64,000 bases of DNA from Roseicyclus persicicus (GTDB taxonomy: Bacteria; Pseudomonadota; Alphaproteobacteria; Rhodobacterales; Rhodobacteraceae). Below the pieces are notes generated by a model. That model was not told where the DNA came from and ran no database searches. It saw nothing but the letters and a program-made list of their open reading frames with translations. The stretch spans positions 558,001-622,000 of the forward strand of contig NZ_JAAZQQ010000002.1 of NCBI RefSeq assembly GCF_012395815.1, in the 5' to 3' direction. Each line of letters starts with the position of its first letter. Position 1 is the first letter of the stretch. This document shows, in pieces, positions 12,255-64,000 of the stretch. A program made the position numbers and the translations under genes.

Positions 12255-12833
12255 CTGGTCCGTCCCTGTTGGTTATGGGTCTTTTTCCGGCTGCAGATCG
12301 TCCCCGTATCCGCGCCGGGGTCAAGCCCCGTTGCCGCGCAGGGGCGAGGTCAGGGTGGGCTCACGTCGCCAGGCCTGGAAGCCGGGTGAGGTATGCCGTG
12401 TCGGTCGAGATCAGGCCCCGCCTGCGCATGATCAGTCATGGCGGGGCCTCGTGCTGGATGTGCGTTTGGCATGAGCGGTGCTTGAGGCGGGACCTCTGTG
12501 TGGGTCGGGTGGTGCGGCGAAAGAGGATTGTCTGAAACGGACATTCCGGGCGTGATGGCATGTGCTGCGGCGCAGGGCGTTGGTAATGGGGTATATCACT
12601 ATCGAACAACAATCGCCGAAAAATTTTGATCAAGTTCAAATAAGTTTACAAAATCAGATAAAATTGTCTCCTCACGTATTGCCCTGTGGTGTGCCTCTGA
12701 TCGTGACCAATTGAGTGCAATATACAATTTCGAACATTCCCGCGTCACACTGCGCGTCTGTTCGCGTCTGTTCGACTGGCCTTCTATAAGGCCGGCTCAT
12801 CGCCGGGCCGTGCCCCCCGATCGCGCGCCCCCG
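12255..12833. other. Long intergenic region upstream of the ABC transporter operon
   Basis: No gene is supported in these 579 bases. A perfect 10-bp inverted repeat (AGGCCCCGCC at 12413-12422, GGCGGGGCCT at 12440-12449) could form a hairpin, and a smaller CGGGG/CCCCG hairpin lies near 12313. The stretch at about 12590-12740 is strongly AT-rich and is the likely promoter zone. Short open frames here have odd composition (Arg/His/Pro-rich) and no recognisable start context. Confidence 0.5.
12626..12639. promoter_or_regulatory. Possible FNR/Crp-type site
   Basis: TTGATCAAGTTCAA keeps the TTGA-N6-TCAA core of FNR-family sites and matches the TTGATnnnnATCAA consensus at nine of ten positions. It lies in the AT-rich patch about 370 bases upstream of the binding-protein gene. 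One match in AT-rich DNA can arise by chance, so this is weak. Confidence 0.3.
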
Positions 12834-55841: not shown

Positions 55842-56507
55842 ATGTGCGGGCGCATGACCATGACCCACCCCACCGACGCGATGGCGCGGCTGTTCGACGC
55901 CGCGCCGTCGAACGACCTGCCGCCGGTGCCGCGCTACAACATCTGCCCGACGCAGCCCGTGGCCGTGGTGACCGCCGCCGGGGGCCGCCGGGCGATGCGC
56001 CCGATGCGCTGGGGGTTCCTGCCGCACTGGTACAAGACGCCGACCGACGGCCCCCTCCTGATCAACGCGCGGGCCGAGACGATCGCGGACAAGCCCGCCT
56101 TCCGCGCCGCGGTGCGCGAGCGGCGCTGCCTCGTGCCGGCCACCGGCTTCTACGAATGGACCAAGGACGCGGAGGGCAACCGGCTGCCGTGGTATTTCGT
56201 GCCTGCCGACGGCGCGCCGCTGGTGCTGGCCGGCATCTGGCAGGACTGGGGGCAGGGCGACGGGCGCGCGCCGACCGTCGCGGTCGTCACCACCGCGGCC
56301 AGTGCCTGGATGTCCGAGACCCACCACCGCGAGCCGGTCCGGCTGGACCCGGGCGACTGGGCCACCTGGCTGGGCGAGACCGGCGAGAAGGCGGCGCCGC
56401 TGATGCGGCCCGCGCCGCCGGGTTCCTACGACCGCTGGCGCGTCGACCCGCGGGTGAACTCGAACCGGGTCGAGGGCGAGGAGCTGGTGCGGCCGCTGGC
56501 GTCGTGA
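55842..56507 (+). CDS. SRAP-domain (YedK/HMCES) abasic-site protein
   Basis: The ATG at 55842 gives 221 residues beginning MCGRMTM, so Cys2 becomes the N-terminal catalytic residue after Met removal. SRAP residues are visible: INARAETIADKPAFRAAV (Asn and Arg), CLVPATGFYEW (Glu) and SETHHREPV (His), in the right order. These proteins crosslink to abasic sites in ssDNA and protect replication forks. The longer upstream frame overlaps the DUF1127 gene and is not used. Confidence 0.95.
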   Translation: MCGRMTMTHPTDAMARLFDAAPSNDLPPVPRYNICPTQPVAVVTAAGGRRAMRPMRWGFLPHWYKTPTDGPLLINARAETIADKPAFRAAVRERRCLVPATGFYEWTKDAEGNRLPWYFVPADGAPLVLAGIWQDWGQGDGRAPTVAVVTTAASAWMSETHHREPVRLDPGDWATWLGETGEKAAPLMRPAPPGSYDRWRVDPRVNSNRVEGEELVRPLAS

Positions 56508-56635: not shown

Positions 56636-56684
56636 TGGAGCGGGTGGCGGGAATCGAACCCGCGCGTTCAGCTTGGAAGGCTGA
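56636..56684 (-). pseudogene. Duplicated 3' half of tRNA-Gly(TCC)
   Basis: These 49 bases are identical to 56775-56823, the 3' half of the intact tRNA-Gly: CCA, discriminator, acceptor 3' strand, T arm, variable region, anticodon loop and the 5' anticodon strand. The identity breaks exactly after CTGA. The 5' half of the tRNA is absent, so it cannot fold as a tRNA. It lies downstream of the intact tRNA in its transcription direction, where a distal att site of an integrated element is expected. Confidence 0.85.
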
Positions 56685-56774
56685 TTAGAAAATTACGAAT
56701 TTTCTTTTTATGTCACATATTTGACGGCTGCTGGATGCATATCCTTATCAGAATTTTATCGGAAACGATTTCCT
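56685..56774. mobile_element. 90-bp AT-rich remnant between tRNA-Gly repeats
   Basis: Only 29 of these 90 bases are G or C, against a very GC-rich surrounding. The stretch includes a GAAAATT/AATTTTC inverted repeat at 56688-56704 followed by TTTTT, and a GGAAA/TTTCC hairpin at 56761-56773. No integrase or open frame is present. It is flanked by 49-bp direct repeats and is best read as what is left of an integrated element; a simple duplication plus insertion is an alternative. Confidence 0.6.
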
Positions 56775-56848
56775 TGGAGCGGGTGGCGGGAATCGAACCC
56801 GCGCGTTCAGCTTGGAAGGCTGACAGGCTACCATTACATCACACCCGC
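56775..56848 (-). tRNA. tRNA-Gly (anticodon TCC)
   Basis: On the minus strand a 74-base cloverleaf is visible: acceptor GCGGGTG with CACCCGC, D-arm region with GGTAG, anticodon stem TCAGC/GCTGA with loop CTTCCAA giving TCC, T arm GGGTTCGATTCCC, discriminator T and encoded CCA at 56775-56777. The 3' half is duplicated at 56636-56684. Confidence 0.97.
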
Positions 56849-57160
56849 ACGCCAAGGATGCGTTAGTCCAACGCTCATTGCCGGTCAAGTTGGATGGCTC
56901 GGCGCCAGTCCCGCAACACGTCAGATATGTCGTCCTGGGATCTCAGGCCTCGCAAACCCGTGTCCGGCTTTCCCGGTCTGCTCGGGCTCGATCCGGGAAG
57001 GCTGGACACAATGGCTGAACCGGCTTTTCCGCCCGAGATAGGTGAAGACCTGCTTCGGACACCTTGATGCCCCTTCCTCACCCCGCGCGTTGCCTGAGGC
57101 GGCGGGAGCGCGACACTCGGCTGCGCCGCCTCCGCCTGACCGCCAAAGGCAACGCGGTGC
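56849..57160. other. Intergenic region right of tRNA-Gly
   Basis: No gene is supported; a 68-codon minus frame and a 106-codon plus frame cross the tRNA or have mixed composition. The part up to about 57060 is moderately less GC-rich and may contain the tRNA-Gly promoter. At its right end the nested inverted repeats 57086-57156 are listed separately. Confidence 0.45.
57086..57156 (-). terminator. Nested inverted repeats after dctM
   Basis: Two perfect arm pairs are nested: outer CGCGTTGCCT (57086-57095) with AGGCAACGCG (57147-57156), and inner AGGCGGCG (57097-57104) with CGCCGCCT (57124-57131). They begin 4 bases after the dctM stop, in the position of a transcription terminator, but have no T-run. 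A structured mRNA end or protein site is also possible. Confidence 0.5.
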
Positions 57161-58453
57161 CTAGCTGACCGTGCTGCCCAGCCACAGCGTGATCGCGGGA
57201 AAGACCACGAGCAGCCCGAGCCGGACCAGGTCGACCCCTACGAAGGGCACCAGCCCGCGGAAGATCCGGGCGACAGGCACTTCGGGCAGCACAGCCTTGA
57301 GGACAAAGACGTTCATGCCCACCGGCGGCGTGATCAGTGCGATCTCGGTCACGACGATCACGATGATCCCGAACCACACGAGGTCGAAGCCCTGCGCGAC
57401 CACCACCGGGGCAAAGAGGGGCACGAAGATCAGGATGATCGCCATCGAGTCCATCACGCAGCCGAGCACGAGGAACACCGCGAGGATCACGAGGATGAGC
57501 GGCAGGCCCTCGAGGCCGGTCGCATCCACCAGGCCCAGTACCCCCGCGGCGAGCCCCGACAGGGTGAGGAGCTTGGACAGCATCAGCGCCCCGAACAGCA
57601 CGGTGTAGAGCGACACCGAGGTGTAGGCGGTGTCGACGATCACCTGCCGCAGGACGCGCCAGGACATCCGCCCAGTCGCCGCGGCGATGAGCAGGGCGAG
57701 ACCCGCCCCCATCCCGGCCGCCTCGGTCGGCGTGAAGAGCTTGGCGTAGAGGCCGCCGATGATCAGGCCGAACAGGAGCAGGAAGGGCCAGACGCCTGCC
57801 AGCGAGCGCCAGCGGTCGGGCCAGGGCGTGACGTCGCCCTGCGGCGCCTCGGCCGGATTGCGGGCGGCGACCAGCCGGATCACCACGAGGTAGAGCGCAA
57901 GGCCCAAGAGCCCCGGGATGACGCCGGCGACGAAGAGGTCGCCGATGTTGGTCTGGGTCAGGATGCCGTAGACCACCATGATGATCGAGGGCGGGATCAG
58001 GATGCCCAGCGTGCCGCCGGCCGCGATGGTGCCCGAGGCCAGCGCCTGGGAGTAGCCGTAGCGCTTCATGCTTGGGTAGGAGACCTTGGCCATCGTGGCC
58101 GCGGTGGCGTAGCTGGAGCCGCAGACGGCCGAGAAGCCCGCGCAGGACATCATGGTCGACAGCGCGAGGCCGCCGCGGATATGGCCGACGAAGGCATAGG
58201 CGGCGCGGAACAGGTCCTGCGCGATGCCGGTCTTGGCGATGATGTTGCCCATCAGGATGAACATCGGCACCACGGCGAGGTCGTAGTTGAGCACGGCGTC
58301 CGAGATGGTGAAGGGGAGGAGCTGGAACGCGACGGTCCAGTTCACCGCCACCCCGATCCCGGCGATGGAGACCGCGAGGAGGGCGAAGCCGAGCGGCACG
58401 CGCAGGAAGGCGAGGCCGATTGCTGCAAGCATGGACAGGGCACCGACTATCAC
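57161..58453 (-). CDS. dctM: TRAP transporter large permease DctM
   Basis: A 430-residue protein with about twelve helices, starting at GTG 58453, which overlaps the dctQ stop by 4 bases. Family patterns are FILMGNIIAKTGIAQDLF near residue 70, SCAGFSAVCGSSYATAATMAKVSYPSMKRYGY near 104-135 and GTLGILIPPSIIMVVYG near 150, then GCVMDSMAIILIFVPLF near 330. It is the transport channel of a TRAP system that uses the Na+ gradient. Nested inverted repeats follow. Confidence 0.95.
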   Translation of the reverse strand: MIVGALSMLAAIGLAFLRVPLGFALLAVSIAGIGVAVNWTVAFQLLPFTISDAVLNYDLAVVPMFILMGNIIAKTGIAQDLFRAAYAFVGHIRGGLALSTMMSCAGFSAVCGSSYATAATMAKVSYPSMKRYGYSQALASGTIAAGGTLGILIPPSIIMVVYGILTQTNIGDLFVAGVIPGLLGLALYLVVIRLVAARNPAEAPQGDVTPWPDRWRSLAGVWPFLLLFGLIIGGLYAKLFTPTEAAGMGAGLALLIAAATGRMSWRVLRQVIVDTAYTSVSLYTVLFGALMLSKLLTLSGLAAGVLGLVDATGLEGLPLILVILAVFLVLGCVMDSMAIILIFVPLFAPVVVAQGFDLVWFGIIVIVVTEIALITPPVGMNVFVLKAVLPEVPVARIFRGLVPFVGVDLVRLGLLVVFPAITLWLGSTVS

Positions 58454-58950
58454 AGCGGATCCTCCTCGTGGGTGTCTTCGGGGTCGGTCATGGGACCGGT
58501 CAGGGCGATGGCGGCGGCGGCGAGTGTCGAGAGGGCGAAGCTCGCGGCCATGAACAGGTAGAGGGGCTCACGGGGGACGCGGAGCGCCTGGCTGACCTCC
58601 GAGATGCGGCCGGCGTTCAGCCCGTGCCGGACGAAGAGCCAGGCGAGAAGGGCGAGGAGCCCAACCACCAGCACGGCCGTAAGCGCCCGCCACCAGCCCA
58701 TCCAGCGCTGTGCGACCAGGCGGTCGAGGAGGTCGATGGTGAGGTGCGCGCCCGCGGCCGTCACCAGCGGCAGGCCACAGAAGACGACCAGCGCCATCAG
58801 GTGCTCGGTGATGTCGTGGGCGCCGTAGATCGGCGCGGCGAAGAGGCGGCGGCCGATCACGTCGGCGAAGGTCAGCGCGACCATGGCCATCAGGAAAACG
58901 GCCATGACGGTTTCGACCGCGCGCCGCAGCGCCCAGGCGGTGGCATGCAT
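58450..58950 (-). CDS. dctQ: TRAP transporter small permease DctQ
   Basis: A 166-residue protein with four predicted helices (about 12-35, 48-66, 84-108, 128-150). VMAVFLMAMVALTFADVIGRRLF and GAHDITEHLMALVVFCGLPLVT are the usual DctQ patterns. It overlaps the dctM start and lies 64 bases after dctP. In TRAP systems the small subunit is needed for transport but its exact role is structural. Confidence 0.93.
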   Translation of the reverse strand: MHATAWALRRAVETVMAVFLMAMVALTFADVIGRRLFAAPIYGAHDITEHLMALVVFCGLPLVTAAGAHLTIDLLDRLVAQRWMGWWRALTAVLVVGLLALLAWLFVRHGLNAGRISEVSQALRVPREPLYLFMAASFALSTLAAAAIALTGPMTDPEDTHEEDPL

Positions 58951-59014
58951 TCTGGTATCCTCCCTTGACCGGAACCGGGGGCGTGCCCCGGTCCCGGATG
59001 GCGCTGGCGCGCCG

Positions 59015-60040
59015 TCACTCGGCGGTCAGCGCGCCGTAGGTCTCGACGTAGAAGGCGAGCACGGTCTCGGGGTCGGCGACGCCGGCCTCCCGCGCGGCGA
59101 CGATCCAGTCGGCGACCATGGCGTCGTAGATCGTGTCGACCGCCGCGATCAGCTCGGGCGAGGCCTCGGTGATGGTGTGGCCGGCGGCGGCCAGCGCCGC
59201 GGTCGCGGCGGGGTTCTGCGCGTCGAACTGGCGGCCCCAGGCGGCCGAGAGGGTCTCGCCCACGATCGCCTCGATGGCGGCCTGGTCCGCGGGGGCGATG
59301 CTGTCCCAGCGGGCGGAGTTCATCACCACGAAGAAGGCCGCGTCATAGAGCCCCTCGGGGAAGACCGTGTGATGGGTCAGCGCCTCCTCGAGGCGGAAGT
59401 TCACCACCGATTCCATCGTGTGCAGCGAGCCGTCGATCACGCCGCTTTCCAGCATCTCGTAGGCCCGCGTCGCCGGCGCCGCGACCGGCACCGCGCCGAG
59501 CTCGGTCAGGAGCCGCTCCTGGATCGGGCCGCCCATGCGGAATTTCTGGCCAGCGATGTCGCCGGGCGTGACCATCTGCGCGCTGCCGTGGTGCAGCTGG
59601 CCGCCACCGAAGAGGCCCGCCGCCAGCATCTCGACCCCGTCGAACACTTCGAGGTCGGCAAGGTGCGCCTCGTAGGTCCGCCAGAGCGCGACGCTCTGCG
59701 CCTCGGCGTCGGTGCCCGCGTTGGGGAACTCCGCGAACCACAGCGCCACGAAGCGCTCGGGCTCGTAGGTGAAGTTGCCCCAGGTGATGTCGGCCACACC
59801 GGTGCGGGCCAGTTCCCAGTGCTGGGCCGGGCTGCCGAGCGGCGCGGGCAGGATCGTCACGGTCACGCGGCCCTCGGTCACCTCGGCGACCTGTTCGGCG
59901 AAGGGCACGAAGAAGTCGGTGTGCAGGAAATGCGTCGGCGGAACCCAGGACGACATGGTCAGGTTCTGCGCGCCGGCGGCGCCGGCGGCGAACAGGAGCG
60001 CCGTGCCGAGGGCGGTGGTCTTGAGAAGCGTGCGGGTCAT
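59015..60040 (-). CDS. dctP: TRAP transporter substrate-binding protein DctP
   Basis: The ATG at 60040 follows AAAGGGAGA and gives 341 residues with a signal peptide (TTALGTALLFAAGAAGA, cleavage near residue 24). The mature domain has SSWVPPTHFLHTDFFVPFAEQV, the DctP linker Arg region GQKFRMGGPIQERLLTELGAVPV and MESVVNFRLEEALTHHTVF. The ligand is a carboxylate of unknown identity; given catB/benA nearby, an aromatic or keto acid is possible. It is transcribed away from the marR gene. Confidence 0.93.
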   Translation of the reverse strand: MTRTLLKTTALGTALLFAAGAAGAQNLTMSSWVPPTHFLHTDFFVPFAEQVAEVTEGRVTVTILPAPLGSPAQHWELARTGVADITWGNFTYEPERFVALWFAEFPNAGTDAEAQSVALWRTYEAHLADLEVFDGVEMLAAGLFGGGQLHHGSAQMVTPGDIAGQKFRMGGPIQERLLTELGAVPVAAPATRAYEMLESGVIDGSLHTMESVVNFRLEEALTHHTVFPEGLYDAAFFVVMNSARWDSIAPADQAAIEAIVGETLSAAWGRQFDAQNPAATAALAAAGHTITEASPELIAAVDTIYDAMVADWIVAAREAGVADPETVLAFYVETYGALTAE

Positions 60041-60115
60041 GCGGGGTCTCCCTTTGGGGCGGTGCGTCCCGGGGCCGGTCCCGTCCGACTCCTCCGGTCG
60101 GTTCGGTGCGGCATC

Positions 60116-60170
60116 GAGACTGTTGCGGTTTGAGAATAATATGCTGAGACTGTTGCATGCTGAGATCGAA
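60116..60170. promoter_or_regulatory. Direct repeats between dctP and marR
   Basis: GAGACTGTTGC occurs at 60116-60126 and 60146-60156, exactly 30 bases apart (about three helical turns); ATGCTGAGA occurs at 60141-60149 and 60157-60165. The decamer TGAGATCGAA at 60161-60170 occurs again at 60729-60738 in front of the riboswitch. This lies in the divergent dctP-marR spacer, a natural operator place for the MarR protein. Confidence 0.55.
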
Positions 60171-60232
60171 GCGGCGATGGTGGCGCGGGTATCGGGTGAT
60201 ACCGGGAACGGCATGAAGGCGGGGCGGAACGG

Positions 60233-60703
60233 ATGGGCGGGCAGAAAGTCTTTCGGAACGAGCGGCTTACCTATCGGTTGAGCGTGCTGGCCGACCAGGC
60301 CATCGCGGCCAACGACCAGATCTTCGTCCGCAAGACGGGCTGCAGCATCCGGGAATTGCGGGTGCTCCGCCTGATCGACGACACGCCGGGCACGACGTTT
60401 CGCGAGATCGCGCGGGTGACCGGATTCGAACGCAGCCTGACCTCGCGCATCATCCAGTCGCTGATCGGGGCGGGGCTGATCGAGCGGGAGAACTCGGCGG
60501 AGGATGCCCGCGTCTTCCTGCTGCGGACCACGCCCAAGGGACAGGAGCTGCGCCGGGTGGCCCGCGCCCTGTCGGACCGGCTGGAGGCGATCCTGACCGA
60601 ACCGCTGTCGCGGGCCGAGCTGGAGACGCTGGACAGCCTGCTGGAGCGCCTCGGCGTCTGGGTGGCGTCGGACAGCTACCGCGACAAGCTAGCGGTCGAA
60701 TAA
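60233..60703 (+). CDS. MarR-family transcriptional regulator
   Basis: A 156-residue winged-helix regulator. The HTH is TTFREIARVTGFERSLTSRIIQSLIGAGLIERENSAEDARVFLLRTTPKGQEL, with the wing containing the conserved Asp-Ala-Arg. The N-terminal helix LTYRLSVLADQAIAANDQIFVRKTGCSIRELRVLRLI is typical. It is divergent from the TRAP operon and upstream of dadA-catB-benA, so it may control both. Ligands of the family are often aromatic acids. Confidence 0.92.
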   Translation: MGGQKVFRNERLTYRLSVLADQAIAANDQIFVRKTGCSIRELRVLRLIDDTPGTTFREIARVTGFERSLTSRIIQSLIGAGLIERENSAEDARVFLLRTTPKGQELRRVARALSDRLEAILTEPLSRAELETLDSLLERLGVWVASDSYRDKLAVE

Positions 60704-60734
60704 ATCTCACATCAAGATCATCTTGATTTGAGAT
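60704..60734. promoter_or_regulatory. Large near-perfect palindrome upstream of the glycine riboswitch
   Basis: Arms ATCTCACATCAAGA (60704-60717) and TCTTGATTTGAGAT (60721-60734) match at 13 of 14 positions around TCA; the inner ATCAAGAT-C-ATCTTGAT is perfect. It starts right after the marR stop and 37 bases before the riboswitch, so it is placed to regulate the promoter of the dadA transcript or to end the marR transcript. Confidence 0.6.
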
Positions 60735-60770
60735 CGAATAGACGCTAGGGTCGATCCCGCCATACCAGCC

Positions 60771-60845
60771 GTCCCGCGAGAGGCCGACCACCGTCGGCGC
60801 CGAAGGAGCAACCCCCCGGAACCTCTCAGGCAAAAGGACCGGGAC
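60771..60845 (+). ncRNA. Glycine riboswitch aptamer (single)
   Basis: P1 closes as GTCCC (60771-60775) / GGGAC (60841-60845). Inside are the conserved glycine-aptamer strings GAGAGG, GCCGAAGGAGCAA and CCTCTCAGGCAAAAGGAC, in the right order. Only one aptamer is seen; the next 100 bases to the dadA start lack a second CCGAAGG/CTCTCAGG set and would hold the expression platform, ending with the ribosome site GGGAGGT. It probably turns on dadA when glycine is present. Confidence 0.9.
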
Positions 60846-60945
60846 GCGCAGGGCGATCTGAAGCGGGCCGTGCAAGGCGCCCGCAACAGAGGGGACCGCA
60901 CCGCCACAGGGCGGGCGGGAAACCCTTTGGTCGCGGGAGGTTCAC

Positions 60946-62217
60946 ATGACCAATATTGCCGTTATCGGCGCCGGCATCACCGGCGTCTCCACCGCGTCTG
61001 CCCTGATGGATCGGGGCCATGACGTGACGCTCTTCGACCGCAACCGCTACGCGGCGATGCAGACATCCTTTGCCAATGGCGGGCAGCTGTCGGCGTCCAA
61101 CGCCGAGACGTGGAACCGCTGGGCGACCGTGTTCAAGGGGATGCGCTGGATGCTGACCCGCGGCGCGCCGCTCCTCGTGAACCCGACGCCGAGCTGGCAC
61201 AAGTACAGCTGGATGGCCGAGTTCGTCGCCGCGATCCCGCGCTATCGGCAGAACACCGTCGCCACCGCCCGCATGGCCATCGCCGCCCGCGGACTCCTGC
61301 GCGAGAAGGCGGCGCGCTACGGCTTCTACTTCGACGCCGAGGACCGGGGCATCCTGCACATCTACACCGACCCCGCCGAGTTCGCCCATGCGGGGCGGGT
61401 GACGGCGCTCCTGGCCGAGGCAGGGCTGACCCGCCGCGCCGTGACGCCAGCGGAGATCCGGGCCATCGAGCCCGCGCTCCGCGGCGACTTCCACGGCGGC
61501 TACTACACCGAGAGCGATTTCACCGGCGACATCCATCGCTACACCACCGGCCTTGCCCGCGGCATCGCGGGGGAGGGGGCAGACCTGCGCTTCGGCACCG
61601 AGATCGAGGGGCTGCGCCACGGCCCGGACGGGGTGCGCGTGACGTGGCGCCAAGGCGACGAGCGCCACACGGAGCGCTTCGACGCCGTCGTCATCTGCGC
61701 CGGCGTCGAGAGCCGCCGCTTCGCCGCCATGCTGGGCGATCGTGTGAACGTCTACCCGGTCAAGGGTTATTCCATCACCGTCCGGCTGGATGACGAGAGC
61801 AGCCAGAAGGCGGCCCCCTGGGTCAGCCTGCTCGACGACCAGGCCAAGATCGTCACCAGCCGCCTCGGCCCGAACCGGTTTCGCATCGCCGGCACGGCGG
61901 AGTTCAACGGCACCAACCTCGACATCCGCGACGACCGCATCCGCCCGCTGGTCAAATGGTGCGAGCGGTTCTTCCCCGGCGTCAGCACCGAGCACGCGAT
62001 CCCCTGGGCGGGCCTGCGCCCCATGATGCCCGACATGATGCCGAGGGTCGGCCCCGGCCGGCGCCCGCGCGTCTACTACAACACCGGCCACGGCCACCTC
62101 GGCTGGACGCTGTCGGCGGCGACGGCCGAAATGCTGGCCGAGGCCGTCGCGGTGGACCCGGCGCTGACGCCGGCGCGCCCGCAGCGCGCCGCGGCCCTGC
62201 CGATGGCCGCAGAATGA
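60946..62217 (+). CDS. dadA: FAD-dependent D-amino acid dehydrogenase / glycine oxidase family protein
   Basis: A 423-residue FAD enzyme of the DadA family. The FAD-binding motif IAVIGAGITGVSTASALMDRGHDVTLFDR is at residues 4-32, FANGGQLSASNAETWNRW near 46 is the DadA pattern, and the C-terminus has RPMMPDMMPRVGPG and NTGHGHLGWTLS. DadA proteins oxidise D-amino acids to keto acids and ammonia. Because a glycine riboswitch precedes it, glycine or a glycine-derived imino acid may be a true substrate. The ribosome site GGGAGGT is at -6. Confidence 0.88.
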   Translation: MTNIAVIGAGITGVSTASALMDRGHDVTLFDRNRYAAMQTSFANGGQLSASNAETWNRWATVFKGMRWMLTRGAPLLVNPTPSWHKYSWMAEFVAAIPRYRQNTVATARMAIAARGLLREKAARYGFYFDAEDRGILHIYTDPAEFAHAGRVTALLAEAGLTRRAVTPAEIRAIEPALRGDFHGGYYTESDFTGDIHRYTTGLARGIAGEGADLRFGTEIEGLRHGPDGVRVTWRQGDERHTERFDAVVICAGVESRRFAAMLGDRVNVYPVKGYSITVRLDDESSQKAAPWVSLLDDQAKIVTSRLGPNRFRIAGTAEFNGTNLDIRDDRIRPLVKWCERFFPGVSTEHAIPWAGLRPMMPDMMPRVGPGRRPRVYYNTGHGHLGWTLSAATAEMLAEAVAVDPALTPARPQRAAALPMAAE

Positions 62218-62318
62218 CCCCCCGCGCCGCAGCCCTGCTCCCCGGGCTGCGGCGCGTGCCGCGGCAGGGTATCAGCCAAGACCCCCCGCATCATCGACAG
62301 ATCCGGCCTCCCGCCCGC

Positions 62319-63506
62319 ATGGTCCGCCTCAACGCAGAGCCAAGCACGGTGACCCAAGTGACCACGATCGACCGCATCGACACCCGCATCCTCGATATCC
62401 CCACGATCCGGGGGCATGTCCTGTCGATGGCGACGATGCGGACCCAGACCGCCGTGCTGGTGCGCATCCGCTTTTCGGACGGCTCCGAGGGGCTGGGCGA
62501 GGGCACCACCATCGGCGGTCTCAGCTACGGTCCCGAAAGCCCCGAAAGCATCCGCTCGGCCATAGACACCTACCTTGCCCCGGCGCTGGTCGGGCGGTCG
62601 GCCGATGACGTGAACGGCGCGATCCAGCTGATGGACCGCGTCGCCCGCGGCAACCGGATCGCCAAGACCGCCGTGGAGATCGCCCTCTGGGACGGGCTCG
62701 GCAAGCGCCTCGGCGTGTCGGTCGCGCAGCTCTTCGGCGGGGCGGTCCACGCCCGCCTGCCCGTGGCCTGGACGCTCGCCTCGGGCAACTCCGAGACCGA
62801 CATCGCCGAGGCCGAGGAGATGATCGCCACCGGCCGCCACCGCATCTTCAAGCTGAAGATCGGCAAGCGCGCCGTGGCCGAGGACGTGGCCCATGTCGCC
62901 CGCATCAAGGCCGCGCTGGGCGATGCCGCCAGCATCCGCGTCGACGTCAACCAGAGCTGGTCGCTCGCCGAAGCGCGCCGCGGCCTCGCGGCTCTGCAGG
63001 ATGCCGGCTGCGAGCTGGTCGAGCAGCCGGTCGCCGCGCGGTCCCTCGCCGCGATGGCCGAGCTGACCCGCGGCCATGCCATCGCGGTGATGGCCGACGA
63101 GGCGCTGAACGGGCCCGAGGATGCGCTGGCCGTGGCCGGCAAGGCCGCCGCCGATGTCTTCGCCGTCAAGATCGCGCAGTCGGGCGGGCTCAAGCGCGCC
63201 GCCGAGGTGGTGGCGATCGGGCAGGCGGCGGGCCTCGGGCTCTACGGCGGCACGATGCTGGAAACCGGCCTCAGCACCGCCGCCGCGCTGCAGCTCTTCG
63301 CCACCGTCGAGCGGCTGGACTGGGGGACGGAACTCTTCGGTCCGCTGCTCCTGACCGCCGACATCCTCGCCGAGCCCATCACCTACCGCGACTTCCATGT
63401 CGAGGTGCCCCGTGGCCCCGGCCTCGGCGCCGCCCTCGACCCCGACAAGATCGATTTCTACCGCCGCGACCGCGCCCGCAGCGTGACCGCGGTGGCGGGC
63501 GAATAG
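62319..63506 (+). CDS. catB: Muconate cycloisomerase (CatB-type enolase superfamily enzyme)
   Basis: The ATG at 62319 gives 395 residues; a GTG at 62349 is an alternative because homologues begin close to [13 protein letters not shown]. Signatures are [14 protein letters not shown] near residue 30, the KxK motif FKLKIGK near 170, metal ligands in RVDVNQSW (Asp), LVEQPV (Glu) and VMADEAL (Asp), then [11 protein letters not shown] and [12 protein letters not shown]. It converts cis,cis-muconate to muconolactone in the catechol branch. It ends 37 bases before benA. Confidence 0.92.
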
Positions 63507-63543
63507 CCCGACAGACCCACGACAGCCAGGAGGAGACCCGCCC

Positions 63544-64000
63544 ATGTTCACCCAAGCCACCCTCGACGATCTCGCCGGCCGCCTCGACGGCATGGTGCAG
63601 GACGATCCCGAAAACGGCATCTTCCGCGCCCGCCGGGACATGTTCACCGACCCCGAGCTGTTCGAGCTCGAGATGAAGCACATCTTCGAGGGCAACTGGA
63701 TCTACATGGCCCATGAAAGCCAGATCCCGAACCCCGGCGACTACTTCACCCTGCACATGGGCCGGACGCCGGTGATGATCACCCGCGACAAGGACGGCAA
63801 CCTGAACGCGCTGGTCAATGCCTGCTCGCACCGCGGCGCGATGCTGTGCCGGTTCAAGCGGCGAAACCAGAAGACCTTCACCTGCCCGTTCCACGGCTGG
63901 ACCTTCTCCAACACCGGCAAGCTCCTGAAGGTGAAGGACCCGAACGGCGCCGGCTACCCCGAGCAGTTCAACACCGACGGCAGCCATGACCTGACCCGCG
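63544..64000 (+). CDS. benA: Benzoate 1,2-dioxygenase large subunit, N-terminal part (truncated by window edge)
   Basis: Only the first 152 codons are inside the window. AGGAGG lies seven bases before ATG 63544. The Rieske 2Fe-2S motif is present: CSHRGAMLC then CPFHGWTF, 20 residues after the first His-pair segment. The opening [19 protein letters not shown] and [36 protein letters not shown] match BenA/XylX-type enzymes. It hydroxylates benzoate to a cis-diol that leads to catechol and muconate, consistent with catB upstream. Confidence 0.92.

What the first reader, a model, noticed from the sequence alone, without database searches (positions are those of the whole stretch)
56636..56848. 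Scar of an integrated element at tRNA-Gly(TCC)
The 3' half of tRNA-Gly is duplicated exactly (49 bp) 90 bases downstream of the intact gene, and the intervening DNA is only about 32% GC in a very GC-rich window. Tyrosine-recombinase elements integrate into tRNA 3' halves and leave this layout (intact tRNA next to attL, partial copy as attR). Here the element is reduced to 90 bp, so either it was deleted almost wholly or a minimal insertion occurred.
Basis: partly seen in the sequence, partly recalled or inferred. Interest (0 to 1): 0.7.

Follow-up and report, generated by a model that had tools for sequence, protein, structure and literature searches.

The report
Genomic island carrying a replacement tRNA
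The doubled tRNA piece is one end of a large mobile DNA island that appears to have cut the cell's only gene for one glycine tRNA in two and to have brought a complete spare copy of that gene with it, so that the cell comes to depend on the island.

Summary
The repeat is real: 49 bp exact at 56636-56684 (A) and 56775-56823 (3' part of the intact tRNA-Gly(TCC), B), 90 bp apart. It is not the scar of a deleted element. The severed 5' half of a tRNA-Gly(TCC) (C) lies ~61 kb to the right, outside the window (C3:675503-675544), beside an open tyrosine integrase gene. A and C bound a ~60.8 kb island with benzoate-degradation genes. Integration at the anticodon loop does not rebuild the host tRNA; B is the island's own tRNA and the only complete tRNA-Gly(UCC) found in the genome. 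The 90 bp are the attP arm. The same unit occurs in 27 of 390 genomes, spacing 136-139 in all 27; 18 of these also have the integrase. The joined flanks of a Ruegeria element align end to end with intact tRNA sites in 14 sister genomes. The principle is known as tRNA-dependent lysogeny of phages; here it serves apparently non-phage cargo islands with a fixed tRNA-attP-int cassette that can stack. No empty site could be shown for this island itself, because its flanks were rearranged by an inversion.

The parts
56636..56684 (-). A: 3' part of the host's former tRNA-Gly(TCC) at the far att junction; core CTTCCAA at 56673-56679 (minus strand)
   Evidence: exact 49-bp repeat; in 6 of the 10 genus relatives that have the SRAP gene the native tRNA-Gly(TCC) 3' end lies right beside it
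56685..56774 (-). P arm of attP (90 bp, 32% GC): degenerate arm-type integrase sites next to the tRNA end; an IHF-like site in relatives, degenerate here
   Evidence: CCGACA, CCTRCAAA and YAW-N4-TTGAW columns in 29 spacers of equal length; best placing of the window spacer matches 19 of 29 letters of a hand-typed consensus
56775..56848 (-). B: island-borne, complete replacement tRNA-Gly(TCC); the only complete tRNA-Gly(UCC) found in the genome
   Evidence: ARAGORN; Rfam RF00005; genome pattern search with one mismatch
56849..56888 (-). upstream region of B with TTGACC-17-TAACGC, promoter-like by eye
   Evidence: TTGAC at the same place in most relatives shown; the consensus scan found no promoter-like site
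55842..56507 (+). SRAP (SOS response associated peptidase) gene: chromosomal flank outside the island
   Evidence: Pfam PF02586; found in 10 of 12 genus relatives
57161..60040 (-). island cargo: TRAP transporter (DctM 57161-58453, small ORF 58450-58950, DctP 59015-60040)
   Evidence: Pfam DctM and DctP; the small ORF is named by position only
60946..62217 (+). island cargo: D-amino acid dehydrogenase-like
   Evidence: NCBIfam NF009074 above cut-off
62319..63506 (+). island cargo: muconate/chloromuconate cycloisomerase family
   Evidence: NCBIfam TIGR02534 above cut-off
63544..64000 (+). island cargo: benzoate 1,2-dioxygenase large subunit BenA, continues past the window; ring-hydroxylating beta subunit, reductase, BenD and an intradiol dioxygenase gene follow
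   Evidence: NCBIfam TIGR03229 and BenD (NF040811) above cut-off; the others by Pfam only
56680..64000 (.). island inside the window; it continues to the other junction at C3:675508 (integrase gene C3:674288-675379, 5' half C at C3:675503-675544)

Best explanation
The window shows the far end of a ~60.8 kb integrated genomic island (core to core C3:614673-675508). Its tyrosine integrase recombined the island's attP with the anticodon loop of the host's only tRNA-Gly(UCC) gene. This split the gene into a 5' half (C, next to int) and a 3' half (A, next to SRAP), and neither end rebuilds a tRNA. The island carries its own complete tRNA-Gly(UCC) (B) immediately beside the P arm of its attP and so keeps GGA codons readable. 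The 90-bp AT-rich stretch is that P arm (arm-type sites, IHF bend, core). The mobile cassette is tRNA - ~93 bp - core - ~128 bp - int; the rest is mostly cargo (here benzoate degradation). Shown: anatomy, conserved geometry, empty sites for a sister element, B as the only complete copy found. Inferred: catalysis by this integrase, a 7-bp overlap equal to the anticodon loop, IHF use, expression and need of B, and excision restoring the host gene.
For: The exact 42-nt 5' half lies at C3:675503-675544 on the same strand, next to an integrase gene (Phage_integrase + Arm-DNA-bind_3). C+A joined reads as tRNA-Gly(TCC) in ARAGORN in this genome, in 17 of 18 loci and in 18 of 18 genomes. An integrase relative stands behind a broken tRNA-Gly 5' half in 21 of 22 named loci (two of these by eye, one decayed) and in 26 of 30 loci by a loose pattern. 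A search without the integrase finds the unit in 27 of 390 genomes, spacing 136-139 in all 27 though 125-155 was allowed, while the 22 spacers of 93 nt average 49% identity. Unit and integrase (E <= 1e-100) co-occur in 18 genomes where about 2 are expected (hypergeometric p 7e-17). Empty site: the joined Ruegeria arenilitoris flanks (1555 bp) align end to end in 14 sister genomes, each with an intact tRNA-Gly(TCC) at the join. Where A and B stems differ, C pairs 5 of 5 with A in 7 of 8 genomes. B is the only complete tRNA-Gly(UCC) found here.
Against: No empty site for this very island: genus relatives have SRAP and SPFH apart because of an inversion. Here A, B and C are identical, so the stem test is silent. 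Its P arm is degenerate and its spacing 139, so it may no longer move. 9 of 27 unit-bearing genomes lack a full-length integrase of this subfamily and 12 of 30 integrase-bearing genomes lack the unit by the strict pattern. In G450 C pairs with B, not A; in G063 C does not fit A. G076 shows B without a 3' half in range, G078 only one copy near a contig end. No transfer genes were looked for systematically. Nothing was tested at the bench.
Confidence: 0.93

Rival explanations
1. Scar of a nearly completely deleted element: the intact tRNA is a rebuilt attL, the partial copy attR, and 90 bp is all that remains.
For: Layout of an intact tRNA followed by a 3' copy.
Against: The severed 5' half and an open integrase gene lie 61 kb away on the other side of the tRNA; the spacer has nearly the same length and conserved motifs in 34 distinct units.
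Confidence: 0.02
2. Simple tandem partial duplication of the tRNA gene with no mobile element.
For: Exact identity of the two copies here.
Against: In 20 of 34 units the two copies differ, by 1 to 7 of 44 letters; association with one integrase subfamily; 14 sister genomes have one uninterrupted tRNA where the Ruegeria element sits.
Confidence: 0.01
3. The island is a prophage or phage satellite practising tRNA-dependent lysogeny, not a cargo island.
For: Same principle as in actinobacteriophages (PMC10865867). This island and the Jannaschia one carry a VapE-like helicase and an HTH_17 protein, a set that I recall from phage satellites. HTH_36 proteins of two other elements resemble phage replication initiators.
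Against: No integrase relative of 60% identity or more among 50,697 phage and 72,556 plasmid records (best shown 27% and 29%); only short 32-50% matches in viral contigs; 0 units by exact pattern in viral contigs. Of 17 proteins from three elements scanned against PHROGs none hit a family described as structural, though several hit families of unknown function. Only the integrase was shared by all eight stretches compared.
Confidence: 0.12
4. B was the host's original gene and A/C are debris of another tRNA-Gly copy.
For: All three sequences are identical in this genome.
Against: In 6 of 10 genus relatives with SRAP the native tRNA-Gly(TCC) ends beside SRAP, where A is (in two more it is 3-4 kb away); C has its own TTGAC promoter-like upstream (by eye); in 7 of 8 informative genomes C pairs with A, not B.
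Confidence: 0.04

Closest known systems
tRNA-dependent lysogeny of actinobacteriophages (Fionnbharth, LeBron, Gaia; Guerrero-Bustamante and Hatfull 2024, PMC10865867; abstract, two sections and passages read)
   Same: Tyrosine integrase; attB inside a host tRNA gene; short common core (8-17 bp in their Table 2); host tRNA not rebuilt; [quoted passage not shown] arm-type sites.
   Different: Theirs are phages of Actinobacteria with tRNA-Lys, -Ile2 and -Leu targets; the Gly-targeting phages of their table rebuild the tRNA. Here: apparently non-phage cargo islands in Rhodobacterales, target tRNA-Gly(UCC), tRNA fixed ~93 bp from the core as part of the attP cassette.
S. meliloti prophages like phage vB_MloP_Lo5R7ANS at tRNA-Leu(UAG) (PMC11476347, passages read)
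   Same: Alphaproteobacterial; integration inactivates the tRNA gene and the element supplies a similar tRNA. The authors already note that host tRNA genes are thus replaced by foreign ones and diversify.
   Different: Two prophages; no fixed tRNA-attP geometry in the passages read; different tRNA.
ICEMh1-like elements at tRNA-Leu(UUG) (PMC6861422, passages read)
   Same: The direct repeat is the anticodon loop (11 bp).
   Different: By their account one junction keeps a complete tRNA, so no separate replacement gene is needed.
Ordinary tRNA-targeting genomic islands (Islander, PMC4383910, start of abstract seen in a listing)
   Same: Site-specific integration at a tRNA gene, displaced fragment at the far end.
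   Different: There the island restores the split gene; here it does not.

Membership tests
tRNA-dependent lysogeny / integration | attB overlaps a host tRNA gene | tested here: met
   C and A are the halves of tRNA-Gly(TCC); joined they read as a tRNA; empty site shown for the Ruegeria element
tRNA-dependent lysogeny / integration | short common core, tRNA not rebuilt at either junction | tested here: met
   CTTCCAA (TTTCCAA in a few) is what the junctions share; 17 bp in the window's genome; ARAGORN finds no tRNA at C
[quoted passage not shown]
   B, tRNA-Gly(TCC); in relatives
tRNA-dependent lysogeny / integration | the element's tRNA is required for viable integrants | not testable with these tools
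   B is the only complete tRNA-Gly(UCC) found in this genome; need is inferred
tRNA-dependent lysogeny / integration | element is a temperate phage | tested here: not met
   no phage record with an integrase relative of 60% or more, no unit in viral contigs, no PHROG described as structural among 17 proteins scanned; not every ORF was scanned
ordinary tRNA-site genomic island | a junction regenerates the tRNA from the island's own 3' end | tested here: not met
   C is followed by element DNA, not by a tRNA 3' half
phage satellite (PICI-like) | int, regulator/excisionase and VapE-type replication gene in one module (definition recalled) | tested here: inconclusive
   VapE-like gene shared by G000 and G061 only, HTH_17-type gene also in G062
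integrative and conjugative element | relaxase and type IV secretion genes | not tested
   no systematic search for these genes was made

The most novel reading that the evidence does not exclude
In Rhodobacterales an essential tRNA gene, tRNA-Gly(UCC), has become a mobile and addictive part of genomic islands. Each island destroys the resident gene, supplies its own allele, becomes the next island's target, and cannot be lost by simple decay of its integrase because the cell now depends on its tRNA. Islands without any phage thus turn over a core translation gene, and the tRNA acts as a maintenance device for cargo.
Probability: 0.5. Interest if true: 0.75.

Novelty: new variant of a known kind. 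Interest (0 to 1): 0.62.

Why it matters
tRNA-dependent integration was described in 2024 for actinobacteriophages, and its authors wrote that its prevalence elsewhere needs investigation. Here it looks like the standing mode of an apparently non-phage island family found, by the unit alone, in 27 of 390 genomes and 19 of 139 genera. It gives a simple search rule (two tRNA-Gly(UCC) 3' halves 136-139 bp apart), suggests how a metabolic island can become irreversible, adds to the idea (already in PMC11476347) that such elements diversify tRNA genes, and shows that an intact tRNA next to a partial copy need not be attL of an ordinary island.

Tried and rejected
Empty-site test inside the genus: not clean. 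The flanks SRAP and SPFH are each conserved in relatives but apart; their former neighbours lie together on C1 of this genome, which fits an inversion. The Ruegeria element was used instead.

Rfam scan: the tRNA, a weak tmRNA match on the 3' half, and two chance-level matches. Promoter/terminator scan: none found. Solved structures: no match for the integrase at E 0.001. Phage, plasmid and viral collections: no close relative.

Exceptions followed up: G063 and G450, where C does not fit A. In six of 16 genomes compared (G204, G180, G325, G174, G432, G237) the sequence before C is 75-97% identical to that before B (G308 and G417 were left out of that comparison). A second P arm with a further 3' half behind A in G432 shows serial insertion into an older island's tRNA there; G417 and G204, and more weakly G109, have arm-like sequence behind A (scores 9.8, 6.1, 0.2; 99% of random sequences below -4.0). 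For G063 and G450 stacking is a guess. Recapture of the host tRNA by the island is not excluded.

Row handling: the expression missed the 5' halves of L102 and L103, visible (L103 decayed); L106 was not held; 22 loci are 20 genomes because two genomes hold two each and one was not held, plus G000. Some handles are the same genome under two numbers (for example G065/G308, G068/G085, G351/G468, G446/G472, judged by equal contig lengths and places); units were counted by distinct sequence. In one search the scan began at offset 0, so the G432 match, shifted by -1, scored low and was recognised by eye. In one search the G076 stretch ended before its main integrase; the relative counted there is a shorter one.

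Literature: nine of ten paper searches used., which named Roseobacter, returned no paper. Passages only were seen of PMC6861422, PMC8371274, PMC9897764, PMC11476347, PMC12429752 and PMC10872708. Williams 2002 and Castillo 2018 were not held. The tycheposon paper itself was not seen.

Full report
What is there. The window holds one complete tRNA-Gly(TCC) on the minus strand at 56775-56848. Its 3' part, 49 bp, is repeated exactly at 56636-56684; the 90 bp between have 32.2% GC in a window of 70.8%. The window is C3:558001-622000 of a 3.7-Mb genome.

The missing half. A search of the whole genome with this stretch found a third, partial copy: 42 nt, exact, at C3:675503-675544, same strand. It is the 5' half of the tRNA up to the end of the anticodon stem-loop, and next to it lies an open frame with Phage_integrase and Arm-DNA-bind_3 domains. 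Reading in the direction of the tRNA the order is: 5' half (C) - integrase - ~60 kb of genes - complete tRNA (B) - 90 bp - 3' half (A) - SRAP gene. Core to core this is about 60,835 bp. C joined to A reads as tRNA-Gly(TCC) in ARAGORN. So a host tRNA gene was split in its anticodon loop, the two halves mark the ends of the insert, and the complete tRNA lies inside it. In 6 of the 10 genus relatives that have the SRAP gene the native tRNA-Gly(TCC) ends right beside it, the place that A holds here; in two more it is 3-4 kb away.

Relatives of the integrase. A scan of named genomes gave 22 loci with 65-83% identical integrases. The three names looked up are Rhodobacterales (Limibaculum sediminis now bears the name Thermohalobaculum); the others I place there from recall or from their titles. 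In 21 of 22 a broken 5' half of a tRNA-Gly(TCC) stands just before the integrase and is cut after CTTCCAA, or TTTCCAA in L114 (two seen by eye, one decayed; L116 has none). Of 20 genomes searched, G000 among them, 18 hold a pair of tRNA-Gly(UCC) 3' parts 137-139 bp apart. In 17 of these the inner copy is a complete tRNA by ARAGORN or by eye; in G073 a contig end cuts it. The other two, G076 and G078, show one complete copy. Limibaculum sediminis shows the minimum: 5' half, integrase, complete tRNA, spacer, 3' half within about 2 kb.

Unbiased search. Without using the integrase, a pattern of two tRNA-Gly(UCC) 3' parts with any spacing from 125 to 155 was run on 390 genomes: 27 genomes in 19 of 139 genera match, 22 at 137, two at 138, two at 139, one at 136. 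Of 34 distinct units in hand, 29 are spaced 137. The 22 spacers of 93 nt average 49% identity. The 29 keep CCGACA at 12-17 and CCTRCAAA at 23-30, an IHF-like YAW-N4-TTGAW at 50-61 (consensus recalled), and the core. On the integrase side the core lies 127-135 bp from the start codon, 128 in 13 of 26, and the arm typically ends in CCGACAAAAAGCCGACAAA. This is the layout of a lambda-type attP: paired arm sites on both sides, a bend, a short core. The 90 bp of the finding are the P arm. In this genome it is degenerate (best placing 19 of 29 letters).

Integrase and unit go together: 30 of 390 genomes have the integrase (E <= 1e-100), 27 the unit, 18 both (hypergeometric p 7e-17). Of the 9 genomes with a unit but no such integrase, 4 still hold fragments of it and 5 nothing at E 1e-20. 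I read this as the integrase decaying while the tRNA stayed; assembly breaks were not ruled out in each case. Of the 12 integrase-bearing genomes without the unit, three have the TTTCCAA loop that the pattern does not fit (G114, G173, G442).

Empty site. The flanks of the ~15-kb Ruegeria arenilitoris element, joined at the core, make 1555 bp. Of 54 genomes searched 50 matched, and 30 loci (one its own) were examined. In 14 the join aligns end to end with a complete tRNA-Gly(TCC) at it. Three more have the tRNA and the left flank with a gap further on. Two (L199, L205) break at the core and show a severed 5' half, and a third (L212) lacks the tRNA there: probably other occupied sites. The remaining nine match only the neighbouring gene.

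Which copy is foreign. In 20 of 34 units the complete tRNA and the 3' half differ, by 1 to 7 of 44 letters. In 18 genomes with C, A and B in hand, 8 have different anticodon stems in A and B; C pairs 5 of 5 with A in 7 and with B in one (G450). So C and A are, as a rule, the old host gene and B the newcomer. In the window's genome all three are identical and the test is silent. B is the only complete tRNA-Gly(UCC) found there; the other hits are A, tRNA-Gly(CCC) and tRNA-Glu. That UCC is needed for GGA codons is general knowledge.

Stacking. In six of 16 genomes compared the sequence before C is 75-97% identical to that before B, and in G432 a second P arm and a further, different 3' half follow A. 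There at least the replacement tRNA became the next target.

Cargo. The window's island carries BenA, BenD, a muconate cycloisomerase, a D-amino acid dehydrogenase and a CoA-transferase subunit by curated cut-offs, and TRAP transporter, ring-hydroxylating beta subunit, reductase, intradiol dioxygenase and hydrolase genes by Pfam. In eight element stretches compared only the integrase (or a relative of it) is common to all; this island and that of Jannaschia seohaensis (G061) also share a VapE-like helicase, an HTH_17 protein (also in G062) and a 250-aa protein. The Ruegeria element has TauD, alcohol dehydrogenase, cyclase and HTH_36 replication-initiator-like genes. Phage, plasmid and viral collections hold no close integrase relative, and viral contigs no unit.

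Known and new. The principle, a phage that splits a tRNA and brings its own, is tRNA-dependent lysogeny (PMC10865867; abstract, two sections and passages read), with a similar pair of prophages in S. meliloti (PMC11476347, passages). Not met in the nine paper searches: its use by non-phage cargo islands, the fixed tRNA-attP-int cassette, the stacking, and its spread in Rhodobacterales. Hence: new variant of a known kind.

Limits. No empty site for this island itself; no bench data; IHF site, overlap length and need for B are inferred; how the islands move between cells is unknown.

Noticed in passing
G000 C3:614507-675654 and C1:993961-1002779: Relative to genus relatives, an apparent large inversion joins SRAP with SPFH on one side and their former neighbours on C1 on the other; one breakpoint lies at the tRNA-Gly locus. 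A link to the integrase is possible but unproven.
   Followed up: partly
L045-L052, L065-L076 (genus relatives): tRNA-Gly(UCC) differs strongly between species of one genus, with different anticodon stems, mostly beside the same SRAP gene; about 75-80% identical to the window's copy where matched. In line with past replacement, but not tested.
   Followed up: partly
G000 C3:640652-644615: VapE-like helicase, HTH_17 protein and a 250-aa protein that sit beside the integrase in Jannaschia (G061) lie 30 kb from it here, so this island may be composite.
   Followed up: partly
L111 280-2330: A ~2 kb element with integrase and replacement tRNA and little else, small enough for gene transfer agent packaging (idea only).
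   Followed up: no
window 12572-12694: The only other stretch of the window with 90-bp GC at or below 36%.
   Followed up: no
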